NCBI GenBank assembly: GCA_013911415.1
Contig: JACETI010000007.1
Location: forward strand, 62,001-126,000
DNA: 64,000 bases
Origin: Legionella sp.
GTDB taxonomy: Bacteria > Pseudomonadota > Gammaproteobacteria > Legionellales > Legionellaceae
Direction of reading: 5' to 3'
Below are positions 22,908 to 28,617 of the stretch, piece after piece. A program made the translations under genes and the position numbers. Within the stretch, counting starts at the first letter, position 1, and every line of letters begins with the position of its first letter. The notes under the pieces were generated by a model. The model ran no database searches. It had not been told where the DNA came from and was given only the letters and a program-made list of their open reading frames with translations.

Positions 22908-22936
22908 TTGTAATGGTTCGACATTACAGATATAAT
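22908..22936 (+). promoter_or_regulatory. Promoter of the trpR operon with overlapping operator-like inverted repeat
   Basis: -35 TTGTAA (22908-22913), exactly 17 bases, -10 TATAAT (22931-22936). Overlapping the -35 and spacer is a perfect dyad, TGTAATG (22909-22915) and CATTACA (22922-22928), six bases apart. Its position would block RNA polymerase when bound, so autorepression by TrpR is a natural guess. The sequence does not match the E. coli trp operator core (CTAG-containing), so the binding protein is unproven. Confidence 0.65.
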
Positions 22937-22965
22937 GCTTTAATACCATACAAAAAGGAGATCTT

Positions 22966-23250
22966 ATGAAACAAAGTGGTTGGCGTGACTTTCTCCATGC
23001 CTGTTTAAAAATGAATGATCCTGCAGAGTTTCAATTGTTTTTTGACCTGTTTTTCACGGTCGAAGAAAAACAGAACATTGCTTCACGGTATTTAATTATT
23101 AAAGAACTGCTAGCACATGAGCTCACACAACGTGAGATTTGCAAAGTTCACCAAGTAAGCATTGCGCAGATCACAAGAGGTTCAAATGCGTTAAAAACAT
23201 TAGATGACAGTCAACTTAACGCGTTAAAAGATATTTTATGTGTTACCTAG
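22966..23250 (+). CDS. trpR: Trp operon repressor TrpR, chlamydial type
   Basis: 94 residues, all-helical TrpR fold. ELTQREICKVHQVSIAQITR then GSNALK is the helix-turn-helix with the TrpR-specific ITRGSNxLK. The N-terminal part (SGWRDFLHACLKM, IASRYLIIKELL) agrees, from memory, better with chlamydial TrpR than with the longer E. coli protein. Family function: binds L-tryptophan as co-repressor and shuts off target promoters. First gene of a five-gene operon; AAGGAG lies about 6 bases before the ATG. No trp biosynthetic genes adjoin it; the next gene is an IDO-like dioxygenase 17 bases on. Confidence 0.92.
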   Translation: MKQSGWRDFLHACLKMNDPAEFQLFFDLFFTVEEKQNIASRYLIIKELLAHELTQREICKVHQVSIAQITRGSNALKTLDDSQLNALKDILCVT

Positions 23251-23267
23251 TTTAGAGGAGTACTACC

Positions 23268-24536
23268 ATGTTTTTTTGTTGTCGTAGAAAAATTCAGCCT
23301 ACTATTCATTTTGGTTTTTTACCAAAAACATTCCCGCGCTCAACCCTTATTGATACAGAACCCAAGAGCTTAAACGCACATATTAATCGTATCGCGCATA
23401 ATCTACCGATGTTACTGAAAGAAGGAAAATTGCTCGATGAAATTACAACCCTTGACGCCAAATTTTCTCAAAATTTAATAAAAATAGCGGATGCAGAAGA
23501 TAAAGCAACCGCGATTTTAATGCTCACAATGATATCTCAAGCGTACATTTTTAATGATCCTAAAAACCCTCAAAAATCATTACCCTCTGTGCTTTCTAAA
23601 AATCTAATCAAATTATGTGAGGACAGAAACATTCATATCATTACCTATGATGACTATATCCTACATAACTTCACCCTCCTCGATAAAAAGAAGGGATTTA
23701 GTTTAGAAAACATCGAACCACTCTTTACGTTTACCGATTCCTCTCATGAGAAAGGATTTATTAAAATTCATGTTGCCATCGAAGCGGCTTGCAGCAAAGC
23801 TTTAGATTTGATTCGAGAAATTGCTGTCTTAAAGCAATTAAAAAACGATGATCCATTCCAGGCCCAATTTATTGATAAGCAAACGCTTGTGTGTTTACAA
23901 GAAATTGCACAGGCGCTTAAAGTATCTGGCACGCTTTTACAAGCGATGTATAGCCAATGTGATAGCAACTTTTTTACAAACAATCTACGACCCTATGTCA
24001 CCGGTTGGGGCGTTGTCTCAAATCTTACTGCTGATGGGAAAATCCAGTCGGGCGTTAAGTTAACCTTAGAAGAGGATTCCGAAAAATTGTACTCGTACCA
24101 AGGACCTTCAGGGGCTCAAAGTAGTATTCTCCCAGCGTTTGACGCCTTCTTAGATGTCCATCATGAACCTGGAACGCCGGTGCATAATTTTCAAGCATAT
24201 ATGCCTCAAAAAGACAGGGCTTTCATTCAAGACGCAGCAAAAGCAGGCATAAAAAACCTTAATAACAACCATGAAGGTTCAAGCCTGGTTACAGAAGATG
24301 CTGATGTAAAAAAAGCGTATGAGACAGCAATTGGACGACTAGCTGCTTTTAGAAAATTGCATAAGAACATTGTCCATCACTACCTCGGTATTGAAAAAAA
24401 TGTCGCTCATTCAGACGTTAAAGGAACAGGTGGAACCAACCCCATTTCTTTTTTAGGTGCACTCATTGAGGATACCCTTAAAAAAATAAGCCAGGTAAGT
24501 GATAACCATCAACGTACACAGCAGATAAGAGGTTGA
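23268..24536 (+). CDS. Indoleamine 2,3-dioxygenase-like heme protein
   Basis: 422 residues. The C-terminal two thirds carry the IDO family blocks: FFTNNLRPYVTGW (residues 235-247; substrate-pocket Phe and Arg241), YQGPSGAQSSILPAFDAFL (277-295), His306 in GTPVHNFQAYMPQKDRAF at the place of the proximal heme ligand (His346 of human IDO1), and GTGGTNPISFL (386-396). The family oxidises L-tryptophan to N-formylkynurenine. The N-terminus has FFCCRR instead of a signal peptide. AGGAG lies about 7 bases before the ATG; 17 bases after trpR and 6 before an MFS gene. No kynureninase or formamidase gene is in the window, so the product's fate is unknown. PrnB-type or other heme-indole enzymes are alternatives, but the GTGGT and GPSGAQSS blocks favour IDO. 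Confidence 0.85.
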   Translation: MFFCCRRKIQPTIHFGFLPKTFPRSTLIDTEPKSLNAHINRIAHNLPMLLKEGKLLDEITTLDAKFSQNLIKIADAEDKATAILMLTMISQAYIFNDPKNPQKSLPSVLSKNLIKLCEDRNIHIITYDDYILHNFTLLDKKKGFSLENIEPLFTFTDSSHEKGFIKIHVAIEAACSKALDLIREIAVLKQLKNDDPFQAQFIDKQTLVCLQEIAQALKVSGTLLQAMYSQCDSNFFTNNLRPYVTGWGVVSNLTADGKIQSGVKLTLEEDSEKLYSYQGPSGAQSSILPAFDAFLDVHHEPGTPVHNFQAYMPQKDRAFIQDAAKAGIKNLNNNHEGSSLVTEDADVKKAYETAIGRLAAFRKLHKNIVHHYLGIEKNVAHSDVKGTGGTNPISFLGALIEDTLKKISQVSDNHQRTQQIRG

Positions 24537-24542
24537 GAGACC

Positions 24543-25733
24543 ATGGGTAAACGCAAATTCCTTTTTATTGGTTTCGGTACGGTGATTGAGCATTTAGAAA
24601 ATGTTCTTTTTGGCTTGTACGCTCCTTTGCTCGCTGTTTACTTTTTTAATCCTGTCAACCGAGATCAATCTTGGTTGATAGGGTTGATGTCTTTTAGTTT
24701 ATATTTCCTTGTACGTCCCCTAGGTGCTGTTATTTTTGGTCGCATCGGAGATAACTATGGACGAAAAAGTGCGTTGGTTGCCTCTATTGGATTAATGACA
24801 CTGGGAACATTAGGAATCGGACTCACACCTTCTTACGAGTCGATGGGTGTAGCTGCAAGCTTTCTCTTCCTATCTTTACGATTGGTACAAGGATTAAGCG
24901 TGGGAGGTGAGTATAGCACGGCAATGACTTACGTCTTTGAAAGCACATCCAAAAATCGCCAAACCTTTTATGGTTCGCTTTTGATTGCATCAACACACGT
25001 TGGGGGAATGATCGCAGCAAGCCTTGCTTACACACACCCAACTAACTTTAAAACAGTGTTTGTTATTCTTGGTTTGATGGGCTTAACACTCTTTGGGATG
25101 AGACTCAGTTTGACCGGTAGCCCTAATGAAGAAGCGGTGTTCCAGGAGCCTGTAAAGCCACAAAAAAGCGTCGCGTATTTACGCATTTTCTTATTGAGTA
25201 TGGCTTTAATTTTTTTATTCTATACGGTCACAATTTATTTTAATAAAATTTATTCGGTACAGTTTGCTTTAAGTAACCAACAAACTTACCTGATTAATTT
25301 TTATTTGCTGGCAACATGGGCCTTGCTCACCCCCCTCGTCGGTTATCTCATTGATCTAAGAAAACTTGACCCCAACCGCGTTATGCGTTTGAGTTGCTAT
25401 TTTTCAATGACAGTAGGACTACCTTTGCTTTTCGTTGCGGCTCGTTATCCTCATTTCTATCTTTTTTTACTGGCTCAAATAGCATTGACGATTGCACACA
25501 TTTTATTTTGTGCACCAACACCCGTTATTATTTGTCGTTTTTTTAAATTCGATAAAAGAAACACCCACGTCGGATTAAGTTATGGCATTGGCACATCGAT
25601 AGCCGCTTTGCTTTTGCCACTCAACGATTATTTTTATAACATCTACCGCATCGATGGTGTTATTGCGCTTTTATTTATCTTTATACTTTTGGGATTTTTC
25701 TCAACTTTTCCTTTGAGCTCTAGCCATGAATGA
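24543..25733 (+). CDS. MFS transporter, metabolite:H+ symporter-like, in the trpR operon
   Basis: 396 residues with 11-12 membrane segments. GRIGDNYGRKSAL is the MFS loop 2-3 motif and RLVQGLSVGGEYSTAMTYVFE is the segment-4 signature of the MHS/ProP group (proline/betaine, alpha-ketoglutarate permeases). Context (trpR-IDO upstream, coupled oxidoreductase downstream) suggests uptake or export of tryptophan, kynurenine or a derived indole compound; this is inference. Its end overlaps the next ORF by 8 bases. Confidence 0.88.
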   Translation: MGKRKFLFIGFGTVIEHLENVLFGLYAPLLAVYFFNPVNRDQSWLIGLMSFSLYFLVRPLGAVIFGRIGDNYGRKSALVASIGLMTLGTLGIGLTPSYESMGVAASFLFLSLRLVQGLSVGGEYSTAMTYVFESTSKNRQTFYGSLLIASTHVGGMIAASLAYTHPTNFKTVFVILGLMGLTLFGMRLSLTGSPNEEAVFQEPVKPQKSVAYLRIFLLSMALIFLFYTVTIYFNKIYSVQFALSNQQTYLINFYLLATWALLTPLVGYLIDLRKLDPNRVMRLSCYFSMTVGLPLLFVAARYPHFYLFLLAQIALTIAHILFCAPTPVIICRFFKFDKRNTHVGLSYGIGTSIAALLLPLNDYFYNIYRIDGVIALLFIFILLGFFSTFPLSSSHE

Positions 25734-26091
25734 TCATAATAAACCCTTTTTTGAGCTGTATGATTTAAAAATTGAAGTGCACCAGCAACCAGGTAAAAAT
25801 ATGGTTTGTAACCACCCGAAGGGAACCTATTTTCTACTTCAAGGGGAAAACATTATTTTCCCCGAAGGTATTACTTTCCCCCTTTATAGTTTGGCTGCCT
25901 TAATCCCTCTGTTACCCGCAAAGCAACGTGAAACCGCCGCTTTTGATTGGCTAACTACGGATCATTACGTTGCCTGTCCGGATCCGGCTTGTGGCGGTTT
26001 GTTTAAAATTATCCGACTTCCCGACAAACGTAAATTTTTTCATCATGAAGTCAGTGCGACTCCTTTAGCAGGCAGTCTCAAGCATGAATAA
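25726..26091 (+). CDS. TIGR04076-like small protein
   Basis: 121 residues. Layout like the TIGR04076 family: FFELYDLKIEVHQQPG at the start, CNHPKGTYFLLQGENIIFP (the C-x-H-x-x-G-x-x-F part), LYSLAALIPLLPAKQR in the middle, and CPDPACGGLFKIIRL at the end, where CPDP is the most distinctive piece. Function unknown. It overlaps both neighbours by 8 bases (MFS before, aldo/keto reductase after), so it is made in step with them; I recall, without being able to check, this family near aldo/keto reductases elsewhere. Confidence 0.65.
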   Translation: MNDHNKPFFELYDLKIEVHQQPGKNMVCNHPKGTYFLLQGENIIFPEGITFPLYSLAALIPLLPAKQRETAAFDWLTTDHYVACPDPACGGLFKIIRLPDKRKFFHHEVSATPLAGSLKHE

Positions 26092-27085
26092 ATCTTCCGC
26101 CATTATCAACGGTTGCTGGCAGCTTGCTCAAGGTCATACATTCTCTCGGACAAGTACTCATGTAACTGACCTTTTTTTTAATTATATTGAAGCAGGTTTA
26201 ACGACCTTTGACTGTGCTGATATTTATTGCGGTGTGGAAGAACACTTAGGGCAGCTACGCCGAGAAGCTTCAAGTCAGGGGATTGATATTACCGTCCATA
26301 CAAAATATGTACCCAATAAAGATGCGTTAGCTGATTTAACCTTTCAATGCGTTGAAAAAGCAATTGTTTCTTCCTGTGAAAAATTAGCAACCGAGACATT
26401 GGATTTAGTACAGTTTCATTGGTGGGATTATGCTCGCGGTGATTACCTCCAAGTTTTAGAATGGCTAACTGTTTTAAAAGACAAAGGGCTTATTAAAGAA
26501 ATTGGCTTAACCAATTTTAATGGCACTCACTTACGCCGCATTTTACAACACGGGATAAGCATATATTCGATACAGACCCAATACTCCTTTCTCGACAAGC
26601 GCTTGGAGAAAGAAGTCTTTCAACTTGCACAAACAAATGCGATAAAAATTTTTTGTTATGGCGTCCTTGCAGGGGGATTTTTTTCAATCAATTGGTTAAA
26701 CCAACCTGAGCCTACCTTTCAAACCTTAAAAAATCGTTCCTTGATTAAGTATTTGTTAATTATTCAGGAGTACGGAGGATGGAATAAATTTCAAGCGTTG
26801 TTAAGGACGCTACATAAAATTTCAGAACAGGTGCAGTGTAGTATTTCTGAAGTTGTAGTGCTCTATTTCATTAAATATACAAAAATTGATGCGGTCATCT
26901 TAGGGATTCGTCTAACCTTTGAAAGAAATCCGCTGAATCAATTGAAACTTTTTTCTTTAACCACCGAAGAAAAAAATGACATCCAAAACTATTTTGATTT
27001 TGTTTTAGCGGGCGATATTTATGATTTAGAGCGTAATTCTGAGAGGCATGCGTCTATTATGAAATATAATTTAAATAAAGAATAA
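26084..27085 (+). CDS. Aldo/keto reductase
   Basis: 333 residues, TIM-barrel NADPH reductase. The catalytic tetrad is visible: Asp and Tyr in FDCADIYCG, Lys in VHTKYVP, His in LVQFHWWDY. Further IGLTNFNGTHLRRIL and YSIQTQYSFLDKR, both typical. Last gene of the trpR operon, overlapping the TIGR04076-like ORF by 8 bases. Substrate unknown; by context a carbonyl derived from tryptophan breakdown is possible. The C-terminal 25 residues (DLERNSERHASIMKYNL) are unusual. Confidence 0.88.
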   Translation: MNKSSAIINGCWQLAQGHTFSRTSTHVTDLFFNYIEAGLTTFDCADIYCGVEEHLGQLRREASSQGIDITVHTKYVPNKDALADLTFQCVEKAIVSSCEKLATETLDLVQFHWWDYARGDYLQVLEWLTVLKDKGLIKEIGLTNFNGTHLRRILQHGISIYSIQTQYSFLDKRLEKEVFQLAQTNAIKIFCYGVLAGGFFSINWLNQPEPTFQTLKNRSLIKYLLIIQEYGGWNKFQALLRTLHKISEQVQCSISEVVVLYFIKYTKIDAVILGIRLTFERNPLNQLKLFSLTTEEKNDIQNYFDFVLAGDIYDLERNSERHASIMKYNLNKE

Positions 27086-27189: not shown

Positions 27190-28617
27190 TTAGCCACGGT
27201 TGGTGGGGGAGATTGCACCGCTTGTTTCACCATCCAGAGTCTTTTGATCTCGTTTAGGATCGTAGAAAGGAAAAGAATAATAGGAAGGCTCTTTTGGTTG
27301 ACTTACCTGCTCGTTTAATTGATTCAGCACAGAGGTTTCTTCGACAGTTTCTGTTTTTTCAACGGGTGTAAAACCACTAAGGTCAGGCATGGTGTCCATA
27401 TGATACTTATTATTTGCCTCGATTATTTTTTGCAGTAAGGCAGAATCAATGAGCTGTCGATCGTCAACCGATTGCTTTTGACGCATCGAATCTAAAAGTG
27501 CGAACCTGTCATCAAGTGACGCGTAAAATGCTTCTAAACGTTTGCTCACGGCCTCTAATTCGCGGGCTGCAAAATACTTGTATCGTCCTTGCCTGAAAGT
27601 ATTACTTGCCATAAACATGCAGTATTTTTTAAAGGCATTAAGATAAATTTCAAATAAAGGGGCAACTTCTTCAAAATCTTTTTGATCTTTGCTTAATTTT
27701 CTTGCAAGAGCTACTTCTGACGTATTTACGCTGCTTTTACAATCAGTGTTTAAGTCTTTCCCCTGAATGAATGTTTTTTGATCGTTTTCAATATGCACTA
27801 ATTGACTATGGTATACGCGCAAATATTCTGCCAAAATTTTTTTTATAAAATTTGACAAGGTAGGATAGATACGATCAAGAGGACTAATCGCATTTTTTTT
27901 AACCAAAACAGACAAGATCATTCTTGAAAACAATCCTTCCTTCACTGTAGGTTGGTTTGATTTACCTTGGCTGGCGAGAACGATTTCATGTATATAATCA
28001 CATAAATCACTCATACTGATTGCATCTTGAGAGAGCATATTAGCCAATAACAGTGAAAATGCTTTGTCTTCAGCACCGTCTTTTATAAAAGTTTTTTCGG
28101 GATGATTCTTTTCGAAGATAAACTTAAGCCGTAAATAGACGCTTGGCTCAAACGTGCTAATAACAATTTTTTCTTGTAGAGCCTTCTTGATGAATGGTTC
28201 AACGTATTCTTTGAAGTTAGAAAGCTGTAGTTGCTCTTTATTGTCCAATAACGCTTGTATGACATCAAAATTCAACTCATTTTTATAGCCTTTAAGGGCA
28301 TAATCAAGGACAGCCCGACCCTTAGAATCTTTTTCAAGAAGATTGATGTGATAAAATTGAATATTTTGAATCAATAATACAGCTATAGCACGCGTATTCT
28401 TACCAAAATACACTGCATTTCTGAGTAATTGGTTTTTATTTTCTACTAGCTCTATCATTACCGCTTTAATAGCAGGATCTTTTATTTCTTTGATACAATT
28501 CAATAGTGTATGTTCTAACAACTTACTTTCTTCTAATAAAGTACCTTCAATCATTAACTTTCGTAATCCGTCGTAGCCAATCCCTCGTGTCTCATCATTA
28601 AAAGGTTCAAAACTCAT
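27190..28617 (-). CDS. Unknown 475-residue protein, effector-like
   Basis: Not recognised. Hydrophilic, helical, no signal peptide or membrane helix. The first 130 residues hint at degenerate ankyrin-like helices (LLRNAVYFGKNTRAIAVLL, KDSKGRAVLDYALKGYKN). The middle is Lys/Leu-rich; the C-terminus is flexible and acid/Ser/Pro-rich (VEKTETVEETSVLNQLNEQV, YYSFPFYDPKRDQK). This build is common among Dot/Icm substrates, but no decisive signal is present. AGGAT precedes the ATG by a few bases. A 16-bp perfect palindrome lies 64 bases upstream, and a strong terminator follows, so it is a single-gene unit. Confidence 0.75.
   Translation of the reverse strand: MSFEPFNDETRGIGYDGLRKLMIEGTLLEESKLLEHTLLNCIKEIKDPAIKAVMIELVENKNQLLRNAVYFGKNTRAIAVLLIQNIQFYHINLLEKDSKGRAVLDYALKGYKNELNFDVIQALLDNKEQLQLSNFKEYVEPFIKKALQEKIVISTFEPSVYLRLKFIFEKNHPEKTFIKDGAEDKAFSLLLANMLSQDAISMSDLCDYIHEIVLASQGKSNQPTVKEGLFSRMILSVLVKKNAISPLDRIYPTLSNFIKKILAEYLRVYHSQLVHIENDQKTFIQGKDLNTDCKSSVNTSEVALARKLSKDQKDFEEVAPLFEIYLNAFKKYCMFMASNTFRQGRYKYFAARELEAVSKRLEAFYASLDDRFALLDSMRQKQSVDDRQLIDSALLQKIIEANNKYHMDTMPDLSGFTPVEKTETVEETSVLNQLNEQVSQPKEPSYYSFPFYDPKRDQKTLDGETSGAISPTNRG

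What the first reader, a model, noticed from the sequence alone, without database searches (positions are those of the whole stretch)
22908..27085. TrpR-led operon with an indoleamine 2,3-dioxygenase homologue, transporter, TIGR04076-like protein and aldo/keto reductase
Seen: five rightward genes with gaps of 17 and 6 bases and two 8-base overlaps, one promoter and no internal terminator. TrpR retains the ITRGSNALK helix. The second gene keeps IDO blocks (RPYVTGW, GPSGAQSS, proximal His306, GTGGT). Known: IDO is the host enzyme that starves intracellular pathogens of tryptophan, and chlamydial TrpR controls the bacterial response. Inference: this organism senses tryptophan with TrpR and switches its own tryptophan oxidation and transport, perhaps to make kynurenines that act on the host, or to feed on Trp. 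I know of no described system with this gene set. No kynureninase or formamidase is nearby, so the reductase and TIGR04076 proteins may take over the later steps.
Basis: partly seen in the sequence, partly recalled or inferred. Interest (0 to 1): 0.88.

Follow-up and report, generated by a model that had tools for sequence, protein, structure and literature searches.

The report
Tryptophan-repressed operon with odd oxygenase
A bacterium that probably cannot make its own tryptophan keeps, under a tryptophan-sensing switch, a five-gene operon with a relative of the enzyme that human cells use to destroy tryptophan; the switch should turn it on when tryptophan is scarce, the opposite of what a simple tryptophan-eating pathway would need.

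Summary
In detail: trpR, IDO, MFS, TIGR04076 and aldo/keto reductase (AKR) at 22966-27085, rightward, with the stated spacings. One correction: the haem ligand aligns with His365, not His306.

Added here:
(1) The best promoter overlaps a TrpR-type operator (22909-22928). The same box precedes trpR in two sister genomes where trpR heads trp biosynthesis genes. Tryptophan should therefore repress the operon.
(2) The genome shows no trpB and no kynureninase; its one trpE/pabB-type gene passes only the pabB cut-off.
(3) The gene set is inherited: two relatives carry trpR, MFS, TIGR04076 and AKR in this order, but with a FAD monooxygenase in IDO's place. TIGR04076-AKR is an old pair (67 of 80 loci; fused once).
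(4) Four relatives have a trpL-like leader peptide after trpR; the window has none.

Best reading: a tryptophan-starvation-induced operon for uptake and oxidation of an indole-type aromatic, with an exchangeable oxygenase. Substrate, transport and activity are untested. Eight paper searches listed no such operon.

The parts
22908..22936 (+). promoter, TTGTAA-17-TATAAT
   Evidence: best sigma-70-like match of the region (10 of 12); consensus match only
22909..22928 (+). TrpR-type operator TGTAATGGTTCGACATTACA, overlapping -35 and spacer
   Evidence: perfect 7+7 inverted repeat; the form is shared with boxes upstream of trpR in L053 and L069 (trp operons) and L060, L089, L092 (sister operons)
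22966..23250 (+). trpR, tryptophan repressor
   Evidence: PF01371 1.8e-24; TIGR01321 82.4 over cut-off 67.25
23268..24536 (+). indoleamine 2,3-dioxygenase homologue (422 aa), proximal His365
   Evidence: PF01231 5.5e-59; human IDO1 4.4e-23; pocket residues kept
24543..25733 (+). MFS transporter, metabolite:H+ symporter-like
   Evidence: PF07690 7.5e-23; TIGR00883 174.7 bits, under its cut-off 443; closest to the MFS of the sister operons
25726..26091 (+). TIGR04076 family protein
   Evidence: 49.9 bits over cut-off 33; confident AlphaFold2 model, pLDDT 88.7
26084..27085 (+). aldo/keto reductase
   Evidence: PF00248 2.5e-44

Best explanation
A TrpR-repressed, tryptophan-starvation-induced operon in a probable tryptophan auxotroph that carries a Dot/Icm gene. 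TrpR with bound tryptophan occupies 22909-22928 and blocks the promoter; when tryptophan falls, the five genes are made together. The MFS takes up an aromatic compound (tryptophan-related or another host indole). The IDO homologue oxygenates or opens its ring. The TIGR04076-AKR pair, which accompanies different importers elsewhere, processes the product. IDO fills a slot that sister operons fill with a FAD monooxygenase, so the slot's job is oxidising the ring, not specifically making kynurenine. Shown by sequence and comparison: gene identities, packing, operator kinship, missing trpB and kynureninase, conserved order with exchanged oxygenase. Inferred: repression, transport direction, substrate, order of reactions, lifestyle.
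For: Operator box shared with trpR-led trp operons: L053 and L069 were not inspected before the score was fixed, and trpE (L053) and trpB (both) lie downstream. trpB: 0 matches in G000, while 107 of 143 genomes of the order exceed the cut-off; G017 and G040, which hold relatives of the cluster, also have none over the cut-off (chance of all three lacking it 0.015). Kynureninase absent. Same gene order in L089 and L092 with FAD monooxygenase in slot 2. Sister MFS proteins match the window's at 191-199 bits against 123.5 for the best other match in 143 genomes. TIGR04076-AKR adjacent in 67 of 80 loci, one open frame in L096, beside LIV-ABC, TRAP and catabolic genes elsewhere. Trp-codon leader peptides after trpR in four relatives. 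Passages: bacterial IDOs described as less efficient on Trp than IDO1 and fungal IDOs (PMC7001157).
Against: The IDO keeps the full tryptophan pocket including the carboxylate-binding Arg, so it may simply oxidise tryptophan. IDO with this operon was seen in one genome only; IDO stands without the other genes in 9 of 9 other stand-alone IDO neighbourhoods read. Of 15 trpR upstream regions scored, 8 have no convincing box, one has only a distant one, and that of L092 reaches only P 0.105. The AKR grouping is weak, 74/94. The three-genome trpB figure is small and the genomes are related. What a starved cell would gain is not known. A TrpR-regulated catabolic gene has a predicted precedent (tnaAB in Vibrionales, PMC5343134, passages).
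Confidence: 0.5

Rival explanations
1. True tryptophan dioxygenase for a product: the operon takes up tryptophan and makes N-formylkynurenine, then kynurenine by the arylformamidase-like protein elsewhere; kynurenine or a reduced derivative is released to act on the host or competitors, with tryptophan scarcity as the cue for being inside a host.
For: Full pocket; arylformamidase-like cyclase in the genome; no kynureninase, so kynurenine would be an end product; IcmQ suggests a host-associated life.
Against: Destroying tryptophan when it is scarce is costly for an auxotroph; sister operons lack IDO; the formamidase match is under its cut-off.
Confidence: 0.25
2. IDO is a late, mainly accidental insertion or replacement in slot 2 of a TrpR-MFS-TIGR04076-AKR operon, with no pathway link to its neighbours.
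For: 9 of 9 other stand-alone IDO neighbourhoods read lack the other genes; nearest IDO among the loci compared is 33% identical; no second TrpR-IDO locus found.
Against: It lies in the slot of another ring oxygenase, 17 and 6 bases from its neighbours, with an intact pocket; G+C (0.36-0.42) is like the surroundings.
Confidence: 0.13
3. Ordinary tryptophan catabolism switched on by tryptophan, with TrpR acting as an activator or responding to something else.
For: IDO, transporter and reductase together look catabolic; TrpR regulons can include degradation genes (PMC5343134, passages).
Against: The operator overlaps the -35 element and its form is shared with trp biosynthesis operons; no kynureninase; no trpB.
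Confidence: 0.12

Closest known systems
Sister operons L089 and L092 (trpR-FAD monooxygenase-MFS-TIGR04076-AKR; unannotated MAG contigs)
   Same: regulator, transporter, TIGR04076 and AKR in the same order; TrpR-type box
   Different: FAD monooxygenase in place of IDO; Trp-codon leader peptide between trpR and the oxygenase
TrpR regulons of gammaproteobacteria (PMC5343134, passages)
   Same: TrpR with autoregulation-type operator and transporter control
   Different: no IDO, TIGR04076 or AKR among the regulon genes named in the passages seen
Chlamydia trpRBA (PMC7755916 and others, search listing only)
   Same: trpR leads its operon in an auxotrophic intracellular bacterium facing tryptophan starvation
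   Different: there trpBA make tryptophan from indole; here no trpB and oxidising enzymes instead
Bacterial and human IDO (PF01231)
   Same: haem-ligand His, Arg, Phe and GTGGT positions
   Different: TrpR operon context; position of human Ser167 is His, as in the 9 other stand-alone bacterial rows

Membership tests
Indoleamine 2,3-dioxygenase (PF01231) | profile match over the curated cut-off | tested here: met
   200.4 bits vs 26
Indoleamine 2,3-dioxygenase (PF01231) | proximal haem histidine (human His346) | tested here: met
   His365 by alignment; no usable structure model (pLDDT 37.3)
Indoleamine 2,3-dioxygenase (PF01231) | conversion of L-Trp to N-formylkynurenine | not testable with these tools
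   needs enzyme assay
TrpR repressor | equivalog profile over cut-off, distinct from the hisG-linked TrpR-like type | tested here: met
   TIGR01321 82.4 vs 67.25; groups away from his-linked rows
TrpR repressor | operator of TrpR type at its own promoter | tested here: met
   22909-22928, form shared with two trp operons; binding not tested
TrpR repressor | tryptophan-dependent DNA binding | not testable with these tools
   needs gel shift
Kynurenine catabolic pathway | kynureninase in the genome | tested here: not met
   TIGR01814, 0 matches in G000
Kynurenine catabolic pathway | arylformamidase in the genome | tested here: inconclusive
   TIGR03035 130.5 bits, under cut-off 223
Tryptophan synthesis or indole salvage operon (trp, trpRBA) | tryptophan synthase beta (trpB) | tested here: not met
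   TIGR00263, 0 matches in G000
Attenuator-controlled trp operon | leader peptide with Trp codons before the structural genes | tested here: not met
   17-base gap after trpR and no TGGTGGCG-type stretch in the window; leader frames present in L060, L071, L089, L092
TIGR04076 | profile match over the curated cut-off | tested here: met
   49.9 vs 33 bits

The most novel reading that the evidence does not exclude
Tryptophan-auxotrophic, host-associated bacteria share a tryptophan-starvation-induced pathway that takes up and oxidises a host-made indole or kynurenine-type compound. Its oxygenase slot is filled interchangeably by an IDO-family haem dioxygenase or a FAD monooxygenase, and it relies on the uncharacterised TIGR04076-AKR enzyme pair.
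Probability: 0.35. Interest if true: 0.82.

Novelty: new variant of a known kind. Interest (0 to 1): 0.62.

Why it matters
IDO is known as the enzyme by which hosts starve intracellular microbes of tryptophan, and TrpR as the sensor with which some of them notice it. An IDO homologue under TrpR in a probable auxotroph, in the slot of a flavin monooxygenase and beside a widespread uncharacterised pair, gives a concrete way to ask what bacterial IDOs do. It also gives TIGR04076 a context; one paper of the library searched mentions that name.

Tried and rejected
Genome-contig scan with the window IDO: 14 pattern hits, no relative confirmed. Stand-alone IDO neighbourhoods: 9 of 9 read (L011, L012, L192, L193, L195-L199) lack matches to TrpR, MFS, TIGR04076, AKR and FMO; L189, L190 and the short contig L005 were not read wide. 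Own-genome operator scan: beyond the trpR site, hits (8 forward, 11 reverse) are like the reversed control (6, 10), so no further regulon member is claimed; L172 and L177 were read and set aside.

PF01371 count (97 of 143) overstates TrpR: of 64 loci classified, 49 are the hisG-linked type and 15 TrpR (some genomes occur twice, and matches without a locus were not classified). A first operator pattern of 18 bases was mis-specified. The 20-base score was designed after seeing the window, L060, L089 and L092, and its shuffles keep single-base content only.

Kynurenine catabolism as the whole explanation: rejected for lack of kynureninase. The trpE/pabB-type gene's highest raw score is trpE_most (364.4, cut-off 517.7), but the only cut-off passed among the 25 matches shown is pabB (330.4 vs 328.4); trpA, trpC, trpD, trpF and trpG were not searched in G000. 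IDO structure: single-sequence model useless (pLDDT 37.3). Plasmid search with IDO: 10 records, all under 60% identity; neighbourhoods not read. Composition: no sign of a foreign island.
Full report
OBSERVATION. Family scans name them TrpR, IDO, MFS, TIGR04076 and AKR. A 5'-nucleotidase-family gene lies upstream on the same strand, and a leftward gene without any match downstream. The IDO matches human IDO1 at 4.4e-23. In 12 rows compared (window, 9 stand-alone bacterial IDOs, 2 IDO-reductase fusions) His365 is His in 12, His306 in 3. The Arg of human R231 (window R241) is kept in the 10 stand-alone rows and is Lys in both fusions; the F226 place is Phe in 3 and Tyr in 7 of the 10. Human residue numbers are recalled.

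GENOME. The window is G000:C13:62001-126000 of a 2.5 Mb genome, 98.3% complete. The order held for comparison has 143 genomes, all one family. IcmQ of the Dot/Icm system is present, 187 bits over cut-off 25; a neighbour of one relative's trpR is IcmX-like, under its cut-off. From this I infer a host-associated Legionellales member; no tool named it. trpB: no match. Kynureninase: no match. One PF04715 gene passes only the pabB cut-off among the matches shown, although its highest raw score is to a trpE model. An arylformamidase-like cyclase lies close upstream of it, under its family's cut-off. A tryptophan auxotroph is therefore probable, not proven.

CONTROL. The best promoter-like site, 22908-22936, overlaps the perfect inverted repeat TGTAATG-N6-CATTACA at 22909-22928. 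Boxes of the same 20-base form lie upstream of trpR in L060, L089 and L092 and, found only after the score was set, in L053 and L069. There trpR is followed by trpE (L053; best match trpE at 484.8 bits, cut-off 517.7) and, further on, trpB (both); the genes between are judged by ORF length and order only. The best score was reached in these shares of 200 single-base shuffles: window 0, L053 0.005, L060 0.010, L069 0, L089 0, L092 0.105. Against this: of 15 upstream regions, L055, L057, L059, L063, L064, L066, L068 and L072 have no convincing box, and L054 has one only at -185. In the own genome no other site stands above the control. TrpR regulons hold biosynthesis, uptake and some predicted catabolic genes, with taxon-specific operator letters (PMC5343134, passages). 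Repression is inferred from the place of the operator.

RELATIVES. TIGR04076 is rare in the order: 3 of 143 (G000, G017, G040). A scan of genome contigs with a three-row alignment confirmed 144 relatives, of which the best 80 were kept. In 67 of the 80 an AKR follows directly on the same strand. Of the 13 others, L143 has it upstream, L099 and L110 end within 1.2 kb, eight (L097, L100-L103, L109, L124, L127) have an AKR match on the opposite strand about 0.5 kb downstream, and L135 and L167 have none close by. In Solimonas marina (L096) TIGR04076 and AKR are one open frame. Neighbours vary: ABC importer and AKR-RidA protein (L094), TRAP transporter (L119), enolase-family, beta-oxidation and amidohydrolase genes (L152) (the ABC permease and ATPase of L094 were named by eye). 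The pair looks like a general assimilation module.

SISTER OPERONS. L089 (JABDGC010000002, Gammaproteobacteria MAG) and L092 (JABDCW010000050, MAG labelled Chlamydiae) have trpR, a FAD monooxygenase of 498 and 474 aa (PF01494 1.3e-15 and 2.5e-14), MFS, TIGR04076 and AKR in that order (the L092 MFS is open throughout). L088 shows MFS-TIGR04076-AKR near its contig start, so slot 2 is out of sight. G017 (L061 = L091) has MFS-TIGR04076-AKR with the front of MFS lost, next to an IS-like frame, and trpR on another contig (L060). In G040 (L071) trpR is followed by a frame whose start resembles the monooxygenase and whose end is TIGR04076, then AKR; I read this by eye as a deletion remnant. The MFS of L088, L089 and L092 match the window's at 199, 199 and 191 bits; the best other match in the 143 genomes has 123.5. 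The five cluster AKRs group weakly (74/94, 72% of bootstrap trees, 35 rows chosen, window on a long branch). In the TrpR tree most forks are open and the 96/96 split counts only the two named groups. I conclude common descent with an exchanged oxygenase; the direction of exchange is unknown. The Chlamydiae labels may be binning errors; this was not tested. None of the four genomes behind L088, L089, L091, L092 has trpB over the cut-off; their completeness was not told there.

LEADERS. Short frames after trpR end in SSWWRFYA (L060), HSWWRFYA (L071), SSWWRFHA (L089) and FCWRLHA (L092). Calling them trpL-like rests on recall. WW in the last nine residues occurs in 8 of 1515 small ORFs of 13 sequences scanned, leaders possibly included. 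In L071 and L089 the Trp-codon stretch can pair with CCAAGAA before the next gene; two sequences, no covariation test. The window has a 17-base gap and no leader.

MECHANISM. Tryptophan with TrpR shuts the operon, scarcity opens it; an importer, a ring oxygenase and a reductase pair are then made. That suits uptake and modification of an indole-type compound better than feeding on tryptophan. What the cell gains is unknown. The intact tryptophan pocket is the strongest argument for the rival that it does oxidise tryptophan, perhaps for a signalling product. [quoted passage not shown] another discusses IDO and TDO evolution (PMC4191572, passages).

STRUCTURE. TIGR04076 model: 121 aa, five strands and three short helices, pLDDT 88.7, pTM 0.79. 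C28, C84, C89 and H106 are invariant in 37 rows chosen; a metal site is inference. No PDB chain matches its profile to E 1. Fold comparison did not run. The monooxygenase profile's best PDB match is the FAD-binding part of MICAL3, 1.9e-8.

NOVELTY. Eight paper searches listed nothing on a TrpR-IDO operon or this gene set; only listings and the named passages were seen, and most subscription papers are not held.

Noticed in passing
L013:11378-14749; L016:8199-11096 (similar long frames in L014, L015, L017, L018): Long proteins of about 880-1120 aa with an IDO-like N-terminal part; in the two scanned (L013, L016) it is followed by reductase domains and a cytochrome b5 domain. The Arg of human R231 is Lys in both.
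   Followed up: partly
L060, L071, L089, L092, just after trpR: Leader-peptide frames rich in Trp codons at their end, with possible TTCTTGG/CCAAGAA pairing in L071 and L089.
   Followed up: partly
L096:8001-9398: TIGR04076 and AKR as a single open frame in Solimonas marina.
   Followed up: yes
L194:3188-3826 (own genome, contig C11): Arylformamidase-like cyclase close to a pabB-type gene.
   Followed up: partly
L082, L086, L087 and 46 other loci of 64 classified: TrpR-like proteins of another type; in the loci named here one (L086) is shown beside hisG. They inflate Pfam-based TrpR counts.
   Followed up: partly
window 27190-28617, strand -: 475-aa protein without any Pfam or NCBIfam match.
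   Followed up: no
L089:7454-8374: Kinase of the PF04655 family next to the sister operon.
   Followed up: no
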